From positions 1-10,536 of the forward strand of contig QQUM01000130.1 in the NCBI GenBank assembly GCA_008501545.1: a DNA stretch of 10,536 bases. The letters are read 5' to 3'. Origin of the DNA: Calditrichota bacterium (GTDB taxonomy: Bacteria > Zhuqueibacterota > Zhuqueibacteria > Zhuqueibacterales > Geothermadaptataceae). This document shows positions 1 to 8,487 of the stretch, piece by piece. The notes beneath the pieces are model-generated. The model did not search any database and was not told where the DNA came from. It saw nothing but the letters and a program-made list of their open reading frames with translations. The position numbers and the translations under genes are program-made. The stretch's first letter is position 1; every line of letters starts with the position of its first letter.

Positions 1-69
1 AGCAATTGCCAGACTGGCAAAAATGACCTGGCTGATATTGGGCTCTTGTGTGGTATTTTTTGATGGCAT
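1..69 (-). CDS. possible N-terminus of an unidentified protein (runs off window)
   Basis: On the minus strand an ATG at 69 opens 23 codons that stay open to the window edge, reading MPSKNTTQEPNISQVIFASL and then a short hydrophobic run. It lies 42 nt downstream of the zinc-finger gene on the same strand and could be a third gene of that transcription unit. The polar start followed by hydrophobic residues could be the beginning of a membrane protein. No good Shine-Dalgarno sequence is visible and the fragment is too short to assign to a family, so both the start and the gene itself are uncertain. Confidence 0.3.
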   Translation of the reverse strand, partial: MPSKNTTQEPNISQVIFASLAIA

Positions 70-111
70 TTTATGGTTAACCAGATGTGAGATAATGTCT
101 TAGAAAGGATA

Positions 112-351
112 TTAAACTAAAGCTTGATTGTTGAAATCGAATACAGGTACTTCCACTGTTTTTTCAGGTCGAAGCTTTTTTCTAAACAGATGCATCAATC
201 TATCTGTTACTTCCGGATTGTATGTTTTCTCTCCACATTGAGCACATACTTCAGCGGGCACATTTTCAACTAAAAAGTATTCATTGTCATGATCATAAAC
301 GAAAGTTACTTTTTGATTTTGGAGTTTACCACCACAAATAACACATTTCAT
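112..351 (-). CDS. YgiT-type (MqsA N-terminal-like) zinc-finger protein, putative antitoxin
   Basis: A 79-aa protein with two CxxC pairs (C3/C6 and C36/C39) that would bind one zinc ion. The second pair sits in the typical context VPAEVCAQCGE, followed by a charged helix (residues 46-62). This is the YgiT/MqsA N-terminal zinc-finger fold, which in MqsA contacts and neutralises the toxin. The DNA-binding HTH half of MqsA is absent: the protein ends about 20 residues after the helix. The start is supported by an AGGAG Shine-Dalgarno about 8 nt upstream of the ATG, overlapping the stop region of the upstream DUF4258 gene. The 3-nt gap and toxin-first order match mqsR-mqsA. The family is clear; the antitoxin role is inferred from the pairing. 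Confidence 0.82.
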   Translation of the reverse strand: MKCVICGGKLQNQKVTFVYDHDNEYFLVENVPAEVCAQCGEKTYNPEVTDRLMHLFRKKLRPEKTVEVPVFDFNNQALV

Positions 352-354
352 AAA

Positions 355-657
355 TTATCTCCTGATTCGGAAATCAATCCATTCTTCTGGGTTGGGTTCA
401 TATACTGTCACAATAACAATTTGGGGTGGCAAAGACGCCTGAATATGTAACTTTTTGCCACCTTTGGTTTTGCCATAAATGAGGCAACTTGGCGAATATT
501 TGTCGAAAGGATATTGTTCAATGATTTCACCACTTACAATAGCTTCTTCAATTTCTTTTCGCTCAATTGCTCGCTGCATCATTCTCTTGACAGCATGTTC
601 TGAGAAACGATATGTATTAGCCTGAATATTTTTCTGTATAGCTCGAATTGATTCCAA
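355..657 (-). CDS. DUF4258 domain protein, putative toxin partner of the zinc-finger protein
   Basis: A 100-aa protein with DUF4258 features: an N-terminal stretch RFSEHAVKRMMQR (residues 18-30), an acidic helix EIEEAIVSGEIIEQYP, then SPSCLIYGKTKGGKKLHI and a C-terminal beta strand IVIVTVYEPNPEEW. DUF4258 proteins are RelE/MqsR-fold-like and commonly sit beside YgiT zinc-finger proteins, where they are presumed to be mRNA-interferase-type toxins. The chosen start is TTG at 657, preceded by a GGGG run about 7 nt upstream; no in-frame ATG is available upstream. A TACAAT hexamer abuts the start and might be a -10 box, but no matching -35 is obvious. The catalytic activity is inference; the family call and the operon with the gene at 112-351 are well supported. 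Confidence 0.8.
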   Translation of the reverse strand: MESIRAIQKNIQANTYRFSEHAVKRMMQRAIERKEIEEAIVSGEIIEQYPFDKYSPSCLIYGKTKGGKKLHIQASLPPQIVIVTVYEPNPEEWIDFRIRR

Positions 658-768
658 TATTGTACCCCAGGCTTGTAGTTTTTCACTTTGCTTAAATGCA
701 AAATGGTAAATTTCATTCTGATACGCAACAACTATTTAAACGCATTGCACCCGTACGCTATCCCGAAT

Positions 769-1938
769 TCACCTCAAAAAAAACAGCGCCTGCGAGCCAT
801 GAAACACACCCTTTTCTCCATATTTTTTTTGGATCGTGTCCAGCGCCTGCAACAGGTTTTGTTCCTTTTGCTGGTCGACCGAGGTAAAAAGGTCCAGTTG
901 CGTCGCCGGCGCCAGGTGCAGCAGCCGAATACCGATGCGGCGCAAAGCCACCCGCCGCTCCAGCAATTTCTCACGTAAAAATTCCAGTCCTGCCAGCAGT
1001 TCTCGCTCACTTTGTCCATTATTGGGAATTTTACGCCAGTGGGCAAAAAAACGGTCGTCGGCGAAGGTGGCGGAAAGCGAGATGCGCCCGGCGCACAAAC
1101 CCTTTTCACGCAGTTGCCGTGCCAGGCGGTTGATCAGCGTGTAAAATACCGCGTCGATCTCCGCTACCTCATTGGTCTCCGGCGCGAAAGCCCACTCGGC
1201 ATACAACGCCGGCCGCTTGTCCGGCTGAATGATTGGCGTGCGGTCGATGCCCTGTGACTCCTCGTGGATATACCAGCCGGTGCGCCCGAAAAGCTCCTGC
1301 AGCTGCAGACACGAAAGCCGTGTCACGTCACTGATTCTGTGGATATTCATGTTGCGCAACTCCAGCGCTATTTTGCGGTCCACGTGCGGCAGGAATGTGA
1401 TGTCGAAGGGGCGCACAAAACCACGTTCACGGCCTTGCGGAACCGTGACGATATCCCGCTGCCGAATACTGCGCTGCGACGCCGTGCGACTCACCATTTT
1501 GTTGCTGGCCAAACCCACAGCCGGTTCGATTTCCACCTGCTGCTTCACCTCTTTTTGCAAACGCCAGGCGGTATCGCGGGCGCGCTGCCAGGCGTGCTTG
1601 CGGGCTAGAAATTCCAGGTAGATATTGCCGTAGCGCCAGGGTTCGAACACCGGTGAAAAATTGGCCACCGTTTTTACCATACGCTCGCTGATGCCTTTGA
1701 AAAGTTTGTTTTCCATGGGATTCACGATAATGGTGCGGTCGATGCGCCGCACATCGCGCACCAGCATGCCCGTGTGGATGCCCATGCTGCGCGCCTGCTG
1801 CGATACACCGTAAACCCGCGCCCGGTCTGCCCCCAACGGTGCGATCACAAACGGCCGCCCGCGCAGTTTCGCGTGACGATGCTCCAATGCCGTTGCCAGG
1901 AAATTCGCAATTTCGATGTGAAAAATAACGGTTGCCAT
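769..1938 (-). CDS. catalytically degenerate Y-family DNA polymerase homologue (ImuB-like), beta-clamp-binding
   Basis: A 389-aa protein co-linear with DinB/UmuC-type polymerases: palm start VIFHIEIANFLA (residues 4-15), LRGRPFVIAP (25-34), YGVSQQARSMGI (43-54), palm motif WRYGNIYLEF (101-110), VGLASNKMVSRTAS (141-154), helix-hairpin-helix region (about 180-235) and a little-finger-like C-terminus (240-345). In active enzymes the first motif carries Asp and the second the SLDEAY Asp-Glu. Here these positions are E9, G104 and N105, so the metal site is lost and polymerase activity is unlikely. That is the hallmark of ImuB, the non-catalytic adaptor of the ImuA-ImuB-DnaE2 mutasome. QLDLF at 347-351 is a consensus beta-clamp-binding motif. 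Start chosen at 1938 (MATVIFH) because GGGAG lies 8 nt upstream; an ATG at 1977 would add 13 residues unlike the family. It is divergent from the DnaE-like gene at 2363. An alternative name is 'DNA polymerase IV', but the residues argue against it. Confidence 0.85.
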   Translation of the reverse strand: MATVIFHIEIANFLATALEHRHAKLRGRPFVIAPLGADRARVYGVSQQARSMGIHTGMLVRDVRRIDRTIIVNPMENKLFKGISERMVKTVANFSPVFEPWRYGNIYLEFLARKHAWQRARDTAWRLQKEVKQQVEIEPAVGLASNKMVSRTASQRSIRQRDIVTVPQGRERGFVRPFDITFLPHVDRKIALELRNMNIHRISDVTRLSCLQLQELFGRTGWYIHEESQGIDRTPIIQPDKRPALYAEWAFAPETNEVAEIDAVFYTLINRLARQLREKGLCAGRISLSATFADDRFFAHWRKIPNNGQSERELLAGLEFLREKLLERRVALRRIGIRLLHLAPATQLDLFTSVDQQKEQNLLQALDTIQKKYGEKGVFHGSQALFFLR

Positions 1939-2154
1939 AGCTGTTTCTCCCGGATGCAAGACTGGTTTCATGTTCACTTAAAATTTAAAAATGGTGTACA
2001 TTTAGTCAATAAAAATCTTGCGAAAAAACATTTATGTGCTATATTGTATCATCGCTTTGAATAGGATGTTTTTATGACCACGAAATATACAGAACACGCT
2101 AAAAAAACATAAAATCGACGTAAATAAAATGTTCGTTAAGATAACCATCTTTGG

Positions 2155-2222
2155 GGCTAGTCCGAAGGCGTCTCGCCGAGGATAAAACTGTTTCCGCTCG
2201 GCGAGACGCCTTCGCTCTAGCC
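2155..2222. repeat. 64-nt palindromic element, intergenic copy
   Basis: Left arm 2157-2180 and right arm 2197-2220 are 24-nt inverted repeats with 22 of 24 positions paired (core CGAAGGCGTCTCGCCGAG against its complement), around a 16-nt loop. Two further flanking pairs extend the arms to 2155 and 2222. The ends carry CTAG. A second 64-nt copy with the same arm and loop lengths lies inside the dnaE-like gene at 2763-2826, about 83% identical by my hand alignment. It is not followed by a T-run, so it is not a standard intrinsic terminator. Its position about 140 nt upstream of the dnaE-like start could affect the leader transcript, but that is speculation. It resembles REP or Rickettsia-palindromic-element-type small repeats. 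Confidence 0.85.
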
Positions 2223-2270
2223 AAATTCGGAACTTCAAATTACAGAAAATCTTACATCGAACTGACGTAA

Positions 2271-2284
2271 GAAAAAATTTTTTC
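2271..2284. repeat. perfect 14-bp A/T palindrome near the dnaE2-like promoter
   Basis: The sequence G-A6-T6-C is a perfect palindrome 79 nt upstream of the dnaE-like start codon. It could be a protein-binding site or simply an A-tract bend. Nothing else in the sequence decides this. Confidence 0.4.
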
Positions 2285-2362
2285 GCGTGTTTAGCGTATT
2301 TCGCGGTTTAATCGTTTCATGGAAGCTGCTACTTGGTCAATTCATAAATTCGAGTTCAAAAA

Positions 2363-5300
2363 ATGCAACCCTTCATCCATCTGCACATCCACTCGAATTA
2401 CTCCTTCTGCCGCGGTGGCAATACGCAGGAGGAAATCTGCGCCCGTTTGCAAGAGCAAGGCCACAGCATTTTTGCGTTCACCGAAATTGATGGCTTGCAC
2501 GGGCTGGTATGGGCGCAGCAGGCCGCCCGCAAAGCCGGTTTGCGCTGCATCGTCGGGGCGGAATTGCGTACCGAAACCAACGGCCGAGTCGTGCTCCTGG
2601 TAAAAGATGCGCAGGGCTATCGCAATTTGTCGCAACTCATCTCGCAAAAACGTGCCCTCGATCTGGAAGGCAATACAGAAAATTCAAATTCTCCTCCGAC
2701 GGCGTCTCGCAACGAAAATTCCGATTCTAGCCCGAAGGCGTCTCGCAACGAAAATTTCGATTCTAGTCCGAAGGCGTCCCGCCGAGGACAACACATTGGA
2801 CGCTCAGCGGGACGCTTTCGCTCTAGTGTTCAGGATGAGCAACAGCCACGCTCAGCAGGGGACTTTCGCTCTCATATTCAGAATGGCGAGCAGGCAACCG
2901 GGTTCGCCGCAGCACCTCCCGAGAACGGCTACCGCCACTTTATGCTGCACACCGTACAGCAATTTCGAGCCGGACTGGTCATTCTCAGCGACAGCCCGGT
3001 GCTGTTGCAAAACCTGCGGCAGCACAGCGACGATGACCTCTACGTCCTGTGCATTCCCGGTCCGCAGCGCCAGGCCATGCTGCGCCTGGCCCGGCAGATG
3101 GGACTGCCGCCGGTGGCCAGCAACGATGTGTATTTTGTCAATCCGGACGATTACCACACCCACAAAACCCTGCGTGCCATCGATTGCAACACAGCGCTGT
3201 CGCGCATCCCGCAAAATGAACTGGCGCGCCGCGATGCCTGGCTGAAATCGCCCCGACAAATGGCCGCCGCTTTTCCCGACTGCCCGCAGGCGCTGACCAA
3301 CACCCTGCGCATCGCCGAAAGCTGCCAGTTCGAACTGGAAAATCCCGGCGCCATTTTTCCCCGAGTCACCATTCCTGACGGCAAAAGCGATATCCAGTAC
3401 CTGCGGGAATTGTGCGAGAAAAACATTCCCTGGCGATACAAGGAAAAAACGCCCGCTATCATGCAGCGCCTCGACAAAGAACTGGCGATCATCGGCGAAA
3501 AAGGCTTTGCCGCCTATTTCCTCGTCAGCCGCGATATCGTGCAGCACGCGACGCGCACCTGCGGTCGCGGTTCGGCGGCGGCCAGTCTGGTGTCGTACCT
3601 GCTCGGCATCACCCATGTCGATCCCATCCGCTACGACCTGTATTTCGAGCGTTTTCTGCACCGCGAACGCAGTGATCCGCCGGACATCGACATCGACTTT
3701 GCCTGGGATGAGCGCGACGACGTGCTCGACTATATTTTCGATCACTACGGCGAAAGCCACACCGCGATGATTGCCAATCATGTCTGTTTTAAAGGCCGGG
3801 CCGCATTACGTGAAATCGCCAAATGCTACGGCCTGCCCGATGCGGAAATCGGCCGTATCAGCAAGAAACTGAGCGGCTACTCCGTTCATAACATCAGCAA
3901 AACTATCGAAACCCACCCGGTTTTCCGCGGCATCGAACTGGATGAGCCGTGGCCGGAGATCATTCAACTGGCCGAGCGCATCAACGGTTTTCCGCGCAAT
4001 ATTTCTGTGCACTGCGGTGGTGTGGTAATCACGCCGCAACCGATAGCACAGTATATTCCGGTGGAAAAAGCGCCCAAGGGCGTGCAGATCGTGCAGGTGG
4101 AAAAAGACCAGGCAGAGGAGCTCGGTCTGGTCAAACTGGACATTCTCGGCAATCGCAGTCTCGCCGTCATCCGCGACGCGGTGGCTGCAGTGAAGCGCAA
4201 CACCGGTGTTTCGATCGATTTCAACGAAGTGAACGCGGCGCTCGATCCGGCGACGCAGGAACTCATCAAAACCGGCGACACCATCGGTGTGTTTTATGTG
4301 GAATCGCCGGCGATGCGGCAGTTGCAGCGCAAAGCAAAAACCGGCGATTTCGAGCACCTGGTGATTCACAGCTCGCTCATTCGCCCCGCGGCCAATGCCT
4401 TCAATCGCGAATACCTGCGCCGGCTGCACGGCGGTGACTGGCAGCCGCTGCATCCTTCTGTGGAAGAAATTTTGGAGGAAACCTACGGCATCATGTGCTA
4501 CCAGGAAGATGTGTCGCGGGTGGCGATCGCGCTGGCCGGTTTTTCCGAATCCCGGGGCGATGGGCTGCGCAAGGTTTTCAACAAAAAAAACAACGCCGAA
4601 CGCGTGGCACAATACCAGCGCGATTTTTATGCCGGTGCTTTGGACAAAAATGTTGCGCCGGAGACAGTCACGAAAATCTGGAACATGATTTTGAGTTTTT
4701 CCGGCTACAGTTTTTGCAAGCCGCACAGCGCCAGCTACGCTATGGTATCGTTCAAATCCGCCTGGCTGCGGGCCCACTATCCGGCGGAATTTATGGCGGC
4801 CGTGCTGACCAACCAGGGCGGCTATTATAGCGCATTTGCCTACATTTCCGAGGCCAGGCGCATGGGCATCGAAATTCAACCGCTGGATATTAATCACAGC
4901 GCGAAAGAATACACCGGGGTGGGGAAGAAGTTGCGCATCGGTTTTATGCAGGTGAAAGGGCTGAATGAACGCACGCTGACGCATGTGCTGGACGAACGGG
5001 AAGAAAATGGCATGTACGGCAGTTTCGACGACTTCATGCAGCGCACGCAAACCCTGCCGGCGATGGCGGAAATTCTGGTGAAAGCCGGCGCCTTTGATAA
5101 ACTCGAAACCATGGAACGACGGCCGCAACTGCTGTGGCGCATTGCCCGGAAAAAAGCGGCTCTCGCCCGGCCAATACCGCAGGCCATGCAGGCTTCCCTT
5201 TTTGATGAAAGTGCAGGCCCTGATCCTTCTTTGCGCGAAAGCCGCAACAAACCGCAGCCACCTTCTTTGCTTTCCTTCGATCTGAAAACCATTCTTGCGC

Positions 5301-5659
5301 AGGAAATCGAAACGCTGGGTTTTCTCGTGAGTCGGCACCCGTTGACTTTTTACAAACACCGTGCGGAAGCCCGCAAAGTGGTGCCGGCGAAAGATTTGGC
5401 TTTGTACGTTGGCAAGCGCGTGCGCACCCTCGGCTGGTTTGTCACCGGCAAACTCGCGCGCACCAAAAAGGAAGAACCGATGGAATTTATCAGTTTTGAG
5501 GATACAACCGCTATTTACGAAACCACGTTTTTCCCCAAAGCCTACGAAAAATACTGCCACCTGCTCAGCCATGGCCAACCGTACATTTTAACCGGAAAAG
5601 TGGAAGAAGATTTCGGCGCCGTTGCACTGACGGTGGAGGATGTGGAGAAGATGGAATGA
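2363..5659 (+). CDS. DnaE2/ImuC-like error-prone DNA polymerase III alpha subunit
   Basis: A 1098-aa C-family replicative-type polymerase, close to the usual DnaE2 length of about 1050-1100. N-terminal PHP domain: HLHIHSNYS (6-14), then TEIDGLHG (40-47), where active PHP sites have TDHDGL; E41 and I42 suggest a degenerate metal site. Palm: GRGSAAAS (401-408), PPDIDIDF (439-446) with catalytic D443 and D445, and VKLDILGN with the third Asp D593. Fingers: GYSFCKPHSASYA (781-793). Tail: a QASLF clamp-type motif (943-947), SRHPL (990-994) and an OB fold (about 1005-1095). No exonuclease domain. The start at 2363 places HLHIHS at the expected distance; no strong Shine-Dalgarno is seen. Residues about 109-178 are a repeat-derived insertion in the PHP domain. 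Divergent pairing with an inactive Y-family protein supports DnaE2/ImuC over the replicative DnaE1, as does the shorter length. No imuA/lexA gene is present in this window. Confidence 0.9.
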   Translation: MQPFIHLHIHSNYSFCRGGNTQEEICARLQEQGHSIFAFTEIDGLHGLVWAQQAARKAGLRCIVGAELRTETNGRVVLLVKDAQGYRNLSQLISQKRALDLEGNTENSNSPPTASRNENSDSSPKASRNENFDSSPKASRRGQHIGRSAGRFRSSVQDEQQPRSAGDFRSHIQNGEQATGFAAAPPENGYRHFMLHTVQQFRAGLVILSDSPVLLQNLRQHSDDDLYVLCIPGPQRQAMLRLARQMGLPPVASNDVYFVNPDDYHTHKTLRAIDCNTALSRIPQNELARRDAWLKSPRQMAAAFPDCPQALTNTLRIAESCQFELENPGAIFPRVTIPDGKSDIQYLRELCEKNIPWRYKEKTPAIMQRLDKELAIIGEKGFAAYFLVSRDIVQHATRTCGRGSAAASLVSYLLGITHVDPIRYDLYFERFLHRERSDPPDIDIDFAWDERDDVLDYIFDHYGESHTAMIANHVCFKGRAALREIAKCYGLPDAEIGRISKKLSGYSVHNISKTIETHPVFRGIELDEPWPEIIQLAERINGFPRNISVHCGGVVITPQPIAQYIPVEKAPKGVQIVQVEKDQAEELGLVKLDILGNRSLAVIRDAVAAVKRNTGVSIDFNEVNAALDPATQELIKTGDTIGVFYVESPAMRQLQRKAKTGDFEHLVIHSSLIRPAANAFNREYLRRLHGGDWQPLHPSVEEILEETYGIMCYQEDVSRVAIALAGFSESRGDGLRKVFNKKNNAERVAQYQRDFYAGALDKNVAPETVTKIWNMILSFSGYSFCKPHSASYAMVSFKSAWLRAHYPAEFMAAVLTNQGGYYSAFAYISEARRMGIEIQPLDINHSAKEYTGVGKKLRIGFMQVKGLNERTLTHVLDEREENGMYGSFDDFMQRTQTLPAMAEILVKAGAFDKLETMERRPQLLWRIARKKAALARPIPQAMQASLFDESAGPDPSLRESRNKPQPPSLLSFDLKTILAQEIETLGFLVSRHPLTFYKHRAEARKVVPAKDLALYVGKRVRTLGWFVTGKLARTKKEEPMEFISFEDTTAIYETTFFPKAYEKYCHLLSHGQPYILTGKVEEDFGAVALTVEDVEKME
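2689..2784 (+). repeat. 36-nt (12-residue) tandem repeats, left-arm type
   Basis: Units begin at 2689, 2725 and 2761. The second matches the first at 31 of 36 positions. The third follows the second for its first 20 or so bases, then continues as the full palindromic element. Encoded as SPPTASRNENSD / SSPKASRNENFD / SSPKASRRG. Each unit carries the left arm of the palindrome (CTAG, then YCCGAAGGCGTCYCGC). Confidence 0.85.
2763..2826 (+). repeat. 64-nt palindromic element, copy inside the dnaE2-like gene
   Basis: Left arm 2763-2786, 16-nt loop 2787-2802, right arm 2803-2826: the same architecture and CTAG ends as the intergenic copy at 2157-2220. Arm differences from that copy include T to C at left position 17 and A to G at the paired right position 8, a compensatory change that keeps a stem pair. 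Another change gives a G-T wobble and one gives a C-A mismatch. It is translated in frame as part of the polymerase (SSPKASRRGQHIGRSAGRFR). Confidence 0.85.
2801..2896 (+). repeat. 48-nt (16-residue) tandem repeat, right-arm type
   Basis: Two exactly 48-nt units start at 2801 and 2849. Both open with CGCTCAGC, carry CTTTCGCTCT (within GGACGCTTTCGCTCT in the first and GGGACTTTCGCTCT in the second), and end in an AGCAACAGCCA / AGCAGGCA type tail. The encoded peptides RSAGRFRSSVQDEQQP and RSAGDFRSHIQNGEQA show the same 16-residue period. This duplicates the right arm of the palindrome plus downstream sequence. Confidence 0.8.
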
Positions 5660-5733
5660 TTAGGGTTTGATTTGTAATGATTGCCGAGTTATACCTTATA
5701 AAATGGGAGTTTTAAAGTGTGGGTGTGCATTGA

Positions 5734-5987
5734 TTAGTTGGCTGTATCTGGCATGACTGGAAGAAACCAAACCGAAAAACGAAGTTCGGCGAAGCAAAAT
5801 GAAGAATCTGATGCGTTTAGGAATTCCAAAAGGGATGGCTTACTCATGGAGCCGAACGCGTATGGGAAGATGGGCTGTGGCCTGTAGTCCGATATTGAGT
5901 ACAACGATCACGATTGGTCGTTTGGAAAGTCGGGGATATGTGTCACTGGAATCATACTATCTGCAAGTCAGAAAGACTGATGGTTAG
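5734..5987 (+). pseudogene. C-terminal fragment of a group II intron reverse transcriptase/maturase
   Basis: From the ATG at 5799, NLMRLGIPKGMAYSW (preceded by MK) and later RWAVACSPILSTT and LESRGYVSLESYYL match the conserved C-terminus of LtrA-type intron-encoded proteins (consensus of the type NLxxLGIxKxxAYxW, GYWxxAxSPILxxxL, GYxSLxxYY). Just upstream, in a different frame, GCIWHDWKKPN (5740-5772) is the preceding family motif (IWxxWKKP). A frameshift therefore lies around 5772-5796, and a further stop occurs at 5731. The reverse transcriptase palm and fingers are missing altogether, so the protein is dead. The TAG at 5985 is the native end of the ORF, just before intron domain V, as in intact introns. 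I see no reason to treat the 62-aa ORF as an independent gene. Confidence 0.75.
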
Positions 5988-6012
5988 TAAATCGAAGATT
6001 ATACGAAGTAAA

Positions 6013-6114
6013 ACCGCCGTATACGAGAACCGGGAGTTTATCCTGAGCAAGGTCGAAGGGTACGGTGGTGTGAGAGGCGCACTCCGGTCTATTGGCCGGA
6101 GCCGCCTACTCGAT
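6013..6114 (+). ncRNA. group II intron 3' end: domains V and VI, domain V interrupted
   Basis: ACCGCCGTA (6013-6021) pairs with TACGGTGGT (6061-6069), forming the lower helix of domain V with one G-T pair; the strand GTGTGAGAGG and a hairpin follow. Domain VI is a stem of AGGCG and CTCCGG (6075-6086) against CCGGAG and CGCCT (6096-6107), ending in ACTCGAT, which fits the branch-point A and 3' splice end near 6114. This order (ACCGCCGTAYAC, then GTACGGTGGTGTGAGAGG, then CTACTCGAT) is familiar from bacterial group II introns. The stretch between the two domain V strands is about 25 nt too long (see 6030-6060). No 5' intron half is present. Confidence 0.7.
6030..6060 (+). repeat. extra sequence inside intron domain V, possible small repeat insertion
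   Basis: Between GAGAA and the 3' strand TACGGTGGT an intact domain V of this type has only about 7 nt; here there are 31. The added stretch includes TTTATCCTGAGCAAGGTCG, which resembles short CCTGAGC...GTCGAAGG repeats that I recall as dispersed in many environmental genomes. Only one copy occurs in this window, so its repetitive nature is recalled rather than seen, and exact borders cannot be set. Confidence 0.45.
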
Positions 6115-6199
6115 TGCACACCGACCTCGAAACTTTGTCAAGGCGACTCATTATTGTAGGGGCGTTATAAACACGTTTCACGCTCAAAAAGTGTAAATT

Positions 6200-6457
6200 T
6201 CAGGAGCTGTTGCAGTAAGAAACTGGCAGCAAGGCTCCTGTTTGGCAGTTAGGACATCTGGCAATTTTTTCCTTCGGCCACTCACGTACGTGTTCTTCAA
6301 TTTTTTTCAATAATTTATAGCATTTTTCCAATCCAATTGCTTTTCGGGCACGCAGCAGTTTTTCTTTGCGTACTGGCCGTGCAAGGAAACCACCATAACG
6401 AATTTTACGAAATCGCTTTGGTAAAATGTGAAACAAAAATCTTCGGATAAACTCGGA
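6200..6457 (-). pseudogene. IS91-type (Y2) transposase, C-terminal remnant
   Basis: Reading the minus strand from 6457 gives SEFIRRFLFHILPKRFRKIR and then YGGFLARPVRKEKLLRARK, the conserved C-terminal block of IS91-family transposases (EFIRRFLLHVLPKGFxRIRHYGFLAN type). It ends in a CPNC zinc-type motif and a TGA at 6200. Only about 85 residues of a protein that is normally near 350-400 aa survive, and the HUH/Y2 catalytic half is gone. There is no start codon of its own other than an internal TTG at 6436. The 5' end is a junction to the integrase fragment in a different frame. Confidence 0.75.
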
Positions 6458-6606
6458 TGCTTTTTATTGTGGAAAAGTATGAATCGTCTTACCCAATGAC
6501 GATACGTCTCAACTGTTCGTTTGGAATAATGCCTTGTTTTAAGCGAATTACTGAGTTGGTCCAGGAGTTTCGGAGAATTCGAGTTGGAACGAGAGAAATC
6601 AGGCAT
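6454..6606 (-). pseudogene. tyrosine recombinase (phage-integrase SAM-like) N-terminal remnant
   Basis: Starts at ATG 6606. Residues 12-51 (PKLLDQLSNSLKTRHYSKRT, then VETYRHWVRRFILFHNKKHP) match the N-terminal core-binding SAM-like domain of integron/XerC-type tyrosine recombinases, which often accompany IS91-like elements. Homology stops at HP (6454). The frame then runs out of register through transposase sequence for a further 48 residues to a stop at 6307. The catalytic domain (R-H-R-Y) is missing. Confidence 0.72.
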
Positions 6607-6767: not shown

Positions 6768-7150
6768 ATGAAAACCCACACTTTGTTTTCGTTTTGAATT
6801 GCTATTTGTATGACTGCCACTCTGCTCGCAGGACCTGATGTTGGCATCGATAAGCCGGTACCGGACTTTACCCTCAAAAATCTCGATGGCGAAGAAATCC
6901 AATTGTCCGATTTCAAAGGAAAATTTGTTGTACTCGAGTGGAACAGCTTTGACTGCCCGTTTGTCGGCAAACACTATAAAAAAGGCAATATGCAGGCTTT
7001 GCAGAAAAAATATGGCGAAAAGGGCGTGGTTTGGCTCGTCATCAATTCATCCGCCAAAGGGAAAGCCGGGCATTATCCGGTAGAAGTCTTGAAAGAAAAG
7101 TTGGAACGTAACAAAGTCGAGGCAACGCTTACCTGCTTGATGAATGCGGA
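6768..7150 (+). pseudogene. secreted redoxin (AhpC/TSA, thioredoxin-like family), broken
   Basis: ATG at 6768 with CTGGAG upstream begins a signal peptide (MKTHTLFSF, then a TGA at 6795-6797, then IAICMTATLLAGPDVGI). After it comes a thioredoxin-fold start: VPDFTLKNLDGEEIQLSDFK, GKFVVLEWNSFDCPFVGKHY with the single active-site Cys (codon at 6954), GNMQALQKKYGEKGVVWLVI. This is the CPFVxKHYxxGNMQ type of redoxin. Near 7126 one base appears to be missing: the next frame continues the family sequence as AYLLDECG (7127-7150), whereas the open frame reads TLTCLMNAD. All homology ends near 7150, where the gene is cut off by DNA that runs into the mgtE 3' end. Three lesions (nonsense, frameshift, truncation of about 80 residues) make it a pseudogene. 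A downstream start at 6810 would give a 124-aa leaderless product, which is unlikely to be functional. Confidence 0.8.
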
Positions 7151-7170
7151 TTTTTTGTGTTTTCTTGATT

Positions 7171-8487
7171 TTATAAAATATTAAGAACACTTGCAAACAG
7201 GGTTGCCAGACCCAAAAAACTAAAAAAACCGACTATATCTGTAACCGTGGTCAGGATAATCGATGAAGACTGGGCCGGATCCTGGCCAAAGGCTTTCAGC
7301 ATGATCGGGATGACTGCGCCAGAAAATCCGGCAACCGCCATGGATACGACCATCGCAACCGTGATTACTACGGCCAGCCCAAAAGATCCCGCCCAGAAAA
7401 AGACGATTACTGCAGTGGTGAGGGCGACAGCGAATCCATTTAAAAAGCCGACGATGAGTTCCTTGCGGGCGACGCGAAACCAGTGTCGCGTGCGAATCTC
7501 TCGCAGCGCCAGCCCACGCATAGTTACCGCCAGGGCCTGCGAACCGGTGTTTCCTGACTGACCAGCCACCACTGGTAAGAAGACCGCCAGCACCGTAACT
7601 TTAGCAATAGTCTCTTCAAAAATGCCAACGACAGCGGCAGCTAAAAATGCCGTCGCCAAATTTATTTCTAGCCATGGAAGCCGCTTGCGAATGGCAAAAG
7701 TGACTTTGGAAAGTGCCCGCTCGTCTCGGCCAGCGCCGAACATCATCTGTACGTCTTCGCTGGCATCTTGTTTTGCGGCAGTTACTAACGCATCGTAGCG
7801 AATAACGCCTAAAAATCTGCCGTCAATATCGACGACTGGAAGACTGATGAGCTTGCTGCCTTCCAACAGTTGCACAACATCTTCCCGTGGTGACATGGCT
7901 TGAATCGATACGGGCATCCCTTTTATCAGCGTTGCAAGTCGTTCATTCCGTTGAGAAAAAACAACTTCTTCCAAGGGAACCATACCGATGAGTTTGCCGT
8001 CATCATCGACGATATAGATATGCAAAATTCGCCTGTCGCGGGTGGCGCGAATCATTTTCAGGGCATGTTCGACAGTATCGTCAGGATAGAACGTCAGCGC
8101 TCGCGGATTCATCAGATGACCAGCAGTTTCCGGTGGGTATTGCATCAAGTCCTGCAATTCTTTGGCAACGTTTTTCGGTAACAGCGCGAGTAATTTCTCG
8201 ACGACATCCGACTCGAGGCGAGCCAGCAACCGGCTCGCCAGCGCAGGATCGATCGTTGTAAAGAGCCGGGAGAAGAATGGCTCATCCATTAGCTTGATGA
8301 GTTGCGCGGCAATATCCTGATTTAACCGGGTATAGATTTGCACGGCACGCGTGTTCGGCTCGGCCTGGAGATAATTCACAGTCTCTTCAACAGGAAACGT
8401 ATTCAGCAATCTCGCTGCTTCACCAGGGTAGAGCTGGAAAAACTCCCGTATCAAAAATTTGGTTGCCGTTGATGTTTTGTTTTTCAT
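7171..8487 (-). CDS. mgtE: MgtE family magnesium transporter
   Basis: A 438-aa protein with the full MgtE layout: an N-terminal helical MgtE_N superhelix (about 10-125), two CBS domains (about 126-240), a plug helix region (about 241-270) and five membrane segments (about 275-437). Signature motifs are PVVAGQSGNTGSQALAVTMR (305-324) and the last helices with PIMLKAFGQDPAQSSSIILT (394-413), then TVTDIVG. D417 matches the ion-selectivity aspartate of the Thermus thermophilus channel (D432). It is a homodimeric inner-membrane Mg2+ channel gated by Mg2+ binding to the cytosolic part. Start ATG 8487 has a GGGAG Shine-Dalgarno. It lies 12 nt downstream of the related soluble gene and is the last gene of the operon. 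Its stop at 7171 sits about 20 nt from the truncated redoxin. Confidence 0.93.
   Translation of the reverse strand: MKNKTSTATKFLIREFFQLYPGEAARLLNTFPVEETVNYLQAEPNTRAVQIYTRLNQDIAAQLIKLMDEPFFSRLFTTIDPALASRLLARLESDVVEKLLALLPKNVAKELQDLMQYPPETAGHLMNPRALTFYPDDTVEHALKMIRATRDRRILHIYIVDDDGKLIGMVPLEEVVFSQRNERLATLIKGMPVSIQAMSPREDVVQLLEGSKLISLPVVDIDGRFLGVIRYDALVTAAKQDASEDVQMMFGAGRDERALSKVTFAIRKRLPWLEINLATAFLAAAVVGIFEETIAKVTVLAVFLPVVAGQSGNTGSQALAVTMRGLALREIRTRHWFRVARKELIVGFLNGFAVALTTAVIVFFWAGSFGLAVVITVAMVVSMAVAGFSGAVIPIMLKAFGQDPAQSSSIILTTVTDIVGFFSFLGLATLFASVLNIL

What the first reader, a model, noticed from the sequence alone, without database searches (positions are those of the whole stretch)
2689..2896. 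A palindromic repeat element lives in frame inside a DNA polymerase gene
The PHP domain of the DnaE2-like polymerase contains a 64-nt palindromic element that also occurs upstream in the intergenic region with identical arm and loop lengths. It is translated and adds about 70 residues without breaking the frame. This recalls Rickettsia palindromic elements, which insert in frame into genes, but here in a different setting and in an error-prone polymerase. I know of no description of this particular element.
Basis: partly seen in the sequence, partly recalled or inferred. Interest (0 to 1): 0.75.

Follow-up and report, generated by a model that had tools for sequence, protein, structure and literature searches.

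The report
Mobile palindrome translated inside a polymerase
A small repeated DNA hairpin that spreads through the genome of an uncultured Calditrichaeota-like bacterium has landed inside a DNA polymerase gene and is read in frame as an extra floppy loop; this kind of event is already published, but this repeat family and its place inside a larger transposable element were not found described.

Summary
The 64-nt element at 2157-2220 recurs at 2763-2826 inside a DnaE2-like polymerase ORF; at least 37 places of this kind lie in the host genome. The in-gene insert is 81 codons (2678-2920): one REP-type doublet with half-unit repeats of 36 and 48 nt. Two same-genus orthologues (81%, 78% identical) lack it; a 90%-identical orthologue shares it minus exactly 16 residues, one 48-nt unit. 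So it is inherited, in frame and not an assembly error. Each arm looks like a bulged NTAG-tagged REP hairpin (the two stricter covariation counts do not beat shuffles). The same REPs flank one RAYT-like transposase gene. In relative G002 the core sits inside a 160-162-bp MITE with TIRs and target duplications. Two further gene loci in this genome and one in a relative carry the core in frame. Prior art: Di Nocera 2013 reports REPs inside genes, DnaE2 among them. So: a new REP-like family showing a known behaviour, with capture by a MITE as the less usual part. No functional effect is shown, and dnaE2 is not enriched for palindromes here.

The parts
2363..5659 (+). DnaE2-like DNA polymerase III alpha ORF, 1098 aa
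   Evidence: 59 of 60 genomes searched, own included, have a match at E<=1e-60, replicative DnaE paralogues among them
2678..2920 (+). In-frame insert, 243 nt / 81 codons (residues 106-186), absent from the G001 and G002 orthologues; shared minus 16 residues by P0127
   Evidence: modelled with pLDDT about 22-26 over residues 111-180
2678..2785 (+). Three 36-nt direct repeats, each with one left REP arm (the third runs into the full doublet)
   Evidence: D1
2763..2826 (+). Full 64-nt REP doublet inside the gene; both arms match the family consensus, the loop differs
   Evidence: 87.5 bits
2763..2788 (+). Left REP arm (CTAG tag, bulged hairpin)
2801..2826 (-). Right REP arm (CTAG tag, bulged hairpin)
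2800..2895 (+). Two 48-nt units holding the right REP arm; P0127 lacks residues 160-175 (nt 2840-2887)
   Evidence: (D3)
2157..2220 (+). Intergenic REP doublet upstream of the polymerase gene
   Evidence: 86.1 bits
2251..2267 (-). Remnant of one MITE terminal inverted repeat beside the intergenic doublet (2 mismatches)
769..1977 (-). Divergent Y-family (IMS) polymerase gene, neighbour of the DnaE2-like gene

Best explanation
The element is a REP-like repeat: a 26-nt bulged hairpin with an NTAG tag (CTAG at 48 of 74 ends in this genome, ATAG at 109 of 126 ends in the G002 copies read) that occurs mainly as an inverted doublet (REPIN/BIME-like). It was probably first spread by a RAYT-type HUH transposase, of which one gene flanked by the same REPs survives in this genome. 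One doublet without MITE flanks inserted into the PHP-domain region of the DnaE2-like gene in a recent ancestor. It was read through because a short core leaves some frames open and the site is a loop between two helices; half-units then multiplied by in-frame tandem duplication (36 and 48 nt). In a parallel route the doublet became the interior of a 160-162-bp MITE that expanded outside genes; the full MITE has no open frame, so it can hardly persist in frame inside a gene. SHOWN: repeat family, in-frame insert, absence in two congeners, sharing with a unit-number difference, RAYT-like gene flanked by REPs, TIR/TSD form of the element. INFERRED: REP-arm hairpin as the functional unit, RAYT mobilisation, order of events, tolerance rather than benefit.
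For: At least 37 places in the genome. G002 (81%) and G001 (78%) orthologues lack the insert. P0127 (90%, contig of 452,065 bases) has it: 51 of 65 aligned insert residues identical against 939 of 1017 elsewhere, and 16 residues fewer. Arm hairpin: 96.4% of cells paired, covariation score 0.378 against 0.143 in shuffles (0 of 500 reach it), slid versions at most 0.130; long hairpin 0.086 against 0.080 (62 of 500 reach it); 56 of 58 arms found in G000 keep G-C or A-T at the outer pair of the upper stem. RAYT-like ORF on C214: NF047646 E 7e-20, PF01797 25.2 bits over a cut-off of 23, with four exact REP cores, two on each side, and a 29-nt array on one side. MITE in G002: 59 of 63 copies have both TIRs, 46 of these 59 a direct repeat of 6 nt or more at the ends. 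Other in-frame cases: pectate-lyase-like gene (51 residues absent in 4 of 4 orthologues aligned) and Lhr-type helicase, YpdA-type reductase in G001. Insert modelled as disordered between helices 83-108 and 186-200.
Against: Of the five measures, the two that the tool calls least prone to relatedness do not beat shuffles: pairs with change on both sides 3 against 2.1 (67 of 500 reach it), further pair types 9 against 7.8 (89 of 500). I chose the arm structure after seeing the sequences, and much of the covariation separates left-arm and right-arm classes, that is, few events. The right arm alone folds no better than its shuffles (z -0.62), while the long hairpin folds well (z -4.15). In G001 only 21 of 26 arms found keep the pair. 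The RAYT match is below NF047646's cut-off (71.4 against 80 bits); G001 has core copies but no PF01797 match. Tags are mostly CTAG or ATAG, not GTAG. 'In-gene copies lack TIRs' is p = 0.054 by independent loci (0.0046 by copies). The core is no more open than its shuffles (3.11 against 3.13 frames), and shuffled MITEs also have few open frames (mean 0.27 of 6).
Confidence: 0.75

Rival explanations
1. The in-gene insert came from a MITE copy (or by gene conversion from the intergenic copy some 540 nt upstream) and then lost its TIR flanks; no RAYT-driven REP movement is needed.
For: A MITE remnant lies just upstream (2157-2267), and the G002 locus has a copy upstream of its dnaE gene too. The first two 36-nt units read TCTCGC like the upstream left arm.
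Against: The in-gene doublet has TCCCGC arms as in the family consensus, not the TCTCGC of the upstream copy. None of the 5 in-gene copies in G000 has a TIR trace, against 23 of 32 other copies with one on at least one side. The core exists without the MITE in G001 (0 of 29 copies with TIR; 0 TIR matches genome-wide).
Confidence: 0.2
2. The insert is adaptive: REPs in repair polymerases change activity (mutator tuning), as speculated by Di Nocera et al.
For: Published DnaE2/Uvr/Rec cases and that paper's speculation; here 2 of 3 independent in-gene loci in G000 are DNA-transaction genes (DnaE2-like, Lhr-type); insert kept in a protein 90% identical.
Against: Inverted repeats are not more frequent in 104 dnaE2-like genes than in flanking ORFs (7 in 279 kb against 14 in 323 kb; 20 paired bases or more: 3 against 1). 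The insert is less conserved than the rest (51 of 65 against 939 of 1017) and is modelled as disordered.
Confidence: 0.08
3. The long 64-nt hairpin itself, not the REP arm, is the unit that moves or is recognised.
For: It folds far better than shuffles (z -4.15), the right arm alone does not (z -0.62).
Against: Half-units and single arms occur in arrays inside dnaE2 and beside the RAYT-like gene; no covariation beyond shuffles in the long hairpin; half of the G000 elements (18 of 37) combine a G-C arm with an A-T arm, which puts wobble or mismatch into the long stem.
Confidence: 0.15
4. Artefact: misassembly of a repeat into the gene, or a pseudogene.
For: Fragmented 838-contig MAG, 68% complete.
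Against: The same insert stands in a protein from an independent contig of 452,065 bases (P0127). The frame is open and the domains are present.
Confidence: 0.02

Closest known systems
REP elements / REPINs / BIMEs with RAYT (TnpA_REP), GTAG superfamily
   Same: Short hairpin units with a tetranucleotide tag, inverted doublets, tandem clusters, a RAYT-like gene flanked by the same units, mostly extragenic.
   Different: Tag mostly CTAG (G000) or ATAG (G002), GTAG at 1 of 126 ends in G002. For Calditrichaeota the searches found only a REP-like 18-nt motif in Caldithrix abyssi (PMC5317091 passages).
Intragenic REPs of Di Nocera et al. 2013 (PMC3733652)
   Same: REPs inside ORFs, read in frame, DnaE2 genes included; clusters there encode 43-82 aa, here 81.
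   Different: Different repeat family and lineage; here orthologues without the insert and one with a unit fewer are at hand.
Rickettsia palindromic elements (RPE)
   Same: Palindromic elements inserted in frame in unrelated protein genes.
   Different: Here most copies are not in genes (32 of 37); no sequence comparison with RPEs was made.
MITEs
   Same: In G002 the core lies in a 160-162-bp element with TIRs and target-duplication-like repeats.
   Different: The in-gene copy has no TIR trace; in G001 0 of 29 copies have one; the same TIRs also enclose a different interior in G002.

Membership tests
GTAG REP superfamily | 20-50-nt imperfect palindrome able to form a hairpin | tested here: met
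   26-nt arms; 96.4% of cells pair; left arm folds at z -2.38, right arm only z -0.62
GTAG REP superfamily | GTAG tetranucleotide at one end | tested here: not met
   CTAG at 48 of 74 ends in G000, ATAG at 109 of 126 ends in the G002 copies. Published: a CTAG substrate is cut by TnpASm with reduced activity (PMC8266576 passage)
REPIN (REP doublet) | Two REPs in inverted orientation with a spacer | tested here: met
REPIN (REP doublet) | Predominantly extragenic | tested here: met
   32 of 37 places in G000 not inside a gene supported by homology; 10 of 37 have a spanning frame of 90 aa or more, not all tested by homology
REPtron (REP + RAYT) | Y1 HUH transposase gene flanked by the same REPs | tested here: met
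   C214/L026; 1 of 4 Y1 loci in G000
REPtron (REP + RAYT) | Transposase passes the curated RAYT model | tested here: inconclusive
   NF047646 71.4 bits, cut-off 80
REPtron (REP + RAYT) | Transposase cleaves and transfers these REPs | not testable with these tools
   needs biochemistry
MITE | TIRs and target-site duplications (in-gene copy of the window) | tested here: not met
   no TIR within 80 nt. For comparison, G002: 59 of 63 copies with both TIRs, 46 of 59 with a direct repeat of 6 nt or more, about 17 of 118 strand-counted entries expected with exchanged partners
Rickettsia palindromic elements | In-frame insertion in protein genes | tested here: met
Rickettsia palindromic elements | Sequence relationship with an RPE family | not tested
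   no RPE sequences compared

The most novel reading that the evidence does not exclude
One REP doublet family has two mobility routes in one genus: a bare form (RAYT-type) that can become protein inside genes, and a form captured as the interior of a TIR/TSD MITE whose shell also holds other palindromic interiors. The route decides whether a palindrome can be exapted as coding sequence.
Probability: 0.3. Interest if true: 0.6.

Novelty: new variant of a known kind. Interest (0 to 1): 0.45.

Why it matters
It gives a natural series for how a selfish palindrome becomes protein: orthologues without the insert, one with it minus a unit, one with the full array. It also separates a REP-like unit from a MITE shell, with one relative that holds the core without the shell. 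It extends published REP-in-DnaE2 cases to a Calditrichaeota-related lineage and supplies a test of whether such inserts alter an error-prone type polymerase.

Tried and rejected
Hotspot idea: inverted repeats (14 paired bases or more) in 104 distinct DnaE2-like loci, 7 in 279 kb against 14 in 323 kb of flanking ORFs; no enrichment. An earlier insertion listing took the longest ORF of each locus and picks a wrong frame in some loci, so no count is drawn from it.

N-terminal REP in a solute-binding protein (C722/L027): not counted as in-gene; the catalogued protein (P0247, 429 aa) covers 88% of the long frame and most listed homologues cover 84-89%. L019 and L082: element near the start of the frame, upstream of the likely start codon (L082 by translation only). 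L015: both frames without a Pfam match. L013 and window 2157 have spanning frames of 93 and 91 aa that were not tested. In G001, 15 of 29 copies have a spanning frame of 90 aa or more; four were sent to Pfam (L149, L150, L164, L271) and only L149 matched; the other eleven were not tested. In G002, six of 63 copies have such a frame, with the element within its first 10 residues; not tested by homology. One G005 frame (L280) had no Pfam match.

Core tuned for translation: rejected (open frames equal to shuffles). Autonomous element with the MITE TIRs: not found in the five places read for it; the G002 listing of TIR matches is cut off, so it may exist. Rfam: no match at gathering threshold in the window, L026, L077 and L084, none up to E 1 at 5650-6320.

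Rows dropped or merged: copies of the same dnaE2 locus under two names were merged (108 to 104). Model searches scored at most 150 candidates per genome, so copy numbers are lower bounds and absences are not exhaustive. In one search L027 was labelled in-gene; the counts given here move it to non-gene. Half copies (C214, and one beside a masked stretch on C753) are not among the 37.

Full report
OBSERVATION. The window holds two copies of a 64-nt palindrome, 2157-2220 (intergenic) and 2763-2826 (inside ORF 2363-5659), 83% identical, each with a 16-nt loop. The ORF encodes a 1098-aa DNA polymerase III alpha with PHP, palm/finger, HHH and OB-fold domains. 'DnaE2-like' rests on its neighbour, a divergent Y-family polymerase gene, and on the name 'error-prone DNA polymerase' that sources give many of its homologues. 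NCBIfam's error-prone model matches nearly end to end but below its cut-off (636.5 against 939 bits), and a general DnaE model scores higher (739.3, also below its cut-off). The host genome is a 4.13-Mb MAG in 838 contigs, 68% complete.

FAMILY. Blastn gives 31 matches, both strands counted. A covariance model from 20 copies gives 73 matches up to E 1 in the own genome, which are 37 distinct places; 150 of 976 candidates were scored, so this is a lower bound. Of 13 genomes searched, 4 have matches at E 0.01: G000, G001, G002 (150, the scoring cap) and G005 (5, weak); three same-family genomes and six from further away have none among the candidates scored.

THE INSERT. Orthologues in G002 (81%) and G001 (78%) lack the 81 residues 106-186 of the window protein, nt 2678-2920. 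Inside are three 36-nt units with one left arm each, the doublet, and two 48-nt units with the right arm. 36 and 48 are multiples of three, whereas intergenic arrays of this family repeat at 176 nt (C753) and 29 nt (C214). P0127 (90% identical, contig of 452,065 bases) has the insert but lacks residues 160-175, as long as one 48-nt unit. Within the insert 51 of 65 aligned residues are identical, against 939 of 1017 outside. So the insert is real, shared by descent, in frame, and differs in unit number. Among the 15 sequences of that alignment only the window protein and P0127 have it. The AlphaFold2 model (38 sequences, mean pLDDT 81.6) has pLDDT about 22-26 over residues 111-180, between two helices of the PHP region.

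OTHER GENES. In G000 a gene on C683 (weakly pectate-lyase-like, PF09492 30.7 bits) has a 51-residue insert with the core that is absent in 4 of 4 orthologues aligned (G002, G007, G009, G022); its truncated neighbour paralogue has it too, and a paralogue with a broken frame on C652 carries the doublet without the extra half-unit. An Lhr-type helicase on C318 has the core in frame at a variable site where G007, G009 and G022 have little and G002 has a different stretch. In G001 a YpdA-type reductase has it; P0007, named a Calditrichaeota protein, shares the site, and the 9 other homologues aligned (of 120 listed) lack it. In G002 none of 63 copies read lies clearly in a gene (judged by frames only).

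STRUCTURAL UNIT. On 44 arms (28 distinct) the bulged arm hairpin has 96.4% of cells paired, 21 cells changed on both sides, five standard pair types at one pair, and covariation 0.378 against 0.143 in shuffles (0 of 500), at most 0.130 when slid. Against it: pairs with change on both sides are 3 against 2.1 (67 of 500 shuffles reach it) and further pair types 9 against 7.8 (89 of 500), the two measures least misled by relatedness. The long hairpin on 20 copies gives 0.086 against 0.080 (62 of 500). By energy the order is reversed: the long hairpin folds at z -4.15, the left arm at -2.38, the right arm at -0.62. In G000, 56 of 58 arms found keep G-C or A-T at the outer pair of the upper stem, and 18 of 37 elements combine one arm of each type; in G002 111 of 114 arms are G-C, in G001 21 of 26 keep a G-C or A-T pair. 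I read the REP arm as the likelier unit and the palindrome as an inverted doublet.

TRANSPOSASE. Four PF01797 loci were found in G000. One, C214, encodes a protein matching the REP-associated tyrosine transposase model at E 7e-20 (71.4 bits, cut-off 80), with two exact REP cores upstream, two downstream and an array of 29-nt units on the upstream side. The other three loci in G000 and the eleven Y1 loci fetched from G002 to G005 show no REP core or TIR within four mismatches in the stretches held, apart from one 4-mismatch core in G005. G001 has no PF01797 match.

MITE. In G002, 59 of 63 copies have both TIRs, at 160-162 bp end to end, and 46 of the 59 have a direct repeat of 6 nt or more at the ends; with exchanged partners about 17 of 118 strand-counted entries are expected against 92 seen. 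The TIR pattern (up to 2 mismatches) has 208 matches in G002 (reversed-pattern control 2) and 0 in G001, 14 in G000 (control 1). In G000, 23 of 32 non-gene copies but 0 of 5 in-gene copies have a TIR on at least one side (L027 moved to non-gene): p 0.0046 by copies, 0.054 by loci. The 41 MITEs scored have no open frame (shuffles: mean 0.27 of 6); the core has 3.11 of 6, its shuffles 3.13. The same TIRs bound other elements of about 190 bp with a different interior.

LITERATURE. Di Nocera et al. 2013 (PMC3733652; abstract and outline, sections 5, 15, 16 and the first part of 17 read) describe REPs inside ORFs in several species, name error-prone DnaE2 among them, and report clusters encoding 43 to 82 residues and RAYT genes flanked by TIRs. 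It was the only paper of the library holding both 'DnaE2' and 'repetitive extragenic palindromic'. PMC3116915, PMC10969869, PMC8266576 and PMC5317091 were seen as passages. The other searches were seen as listings and gave no description of this family.

VERDICT. Finding confirmed and sharpened; phenomenon known; repeat family and MITE capture not found in the searches named. No functional consequence for the polymerase is shown.

Noticed in passing
L286:306-496, L288:216-408 (G002): Elements of about 190 bp with the same TIRs as the REP-carrying MITE but a different interior with inverted-repeat stretches.
   Followed up: partly
L132:2446-2462 (G002 Lhr-type gene): A short stretch (CCGGAGCTTGTCGAAGG) that resembles another widespread bacterial repeat by recall, in frame at the site where G000's Lhr-type gene has the REP core.
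   Followed up: partly
L188:4082-4173, L189:4109-4207, L190:3098-3174: Three Planctomycetota DnaE2-like genes carry long palindromes (22 to 29 paired bases) at about the same position (aa 256-259 of the matched part), possibly independent cases in this gene.
   Followed up: no
L084 frame 3-2903 (-), residues about 320-349: A second stretch of the Lhr-type protein absent from the four relatives aligned; no REP core was reported there.
   Followed up: no
window 5690-6170: Resembles a group II intron 3' end by recall; no Rfam match up to E 1 in 5650-6320.
   Followed up: partly
window 6307-6606 (-) and 6810-7184 (+): Short ORF with only an integrase N-terminal SAM-like domain, and a short AhpC/TSA-type ORF matching part of its domain; both look truncated.
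   Followed up: no
L011:4446-5516: Tandem array of the element at 176-bp spacing, with a stretch of N inside.
   Followed up: no
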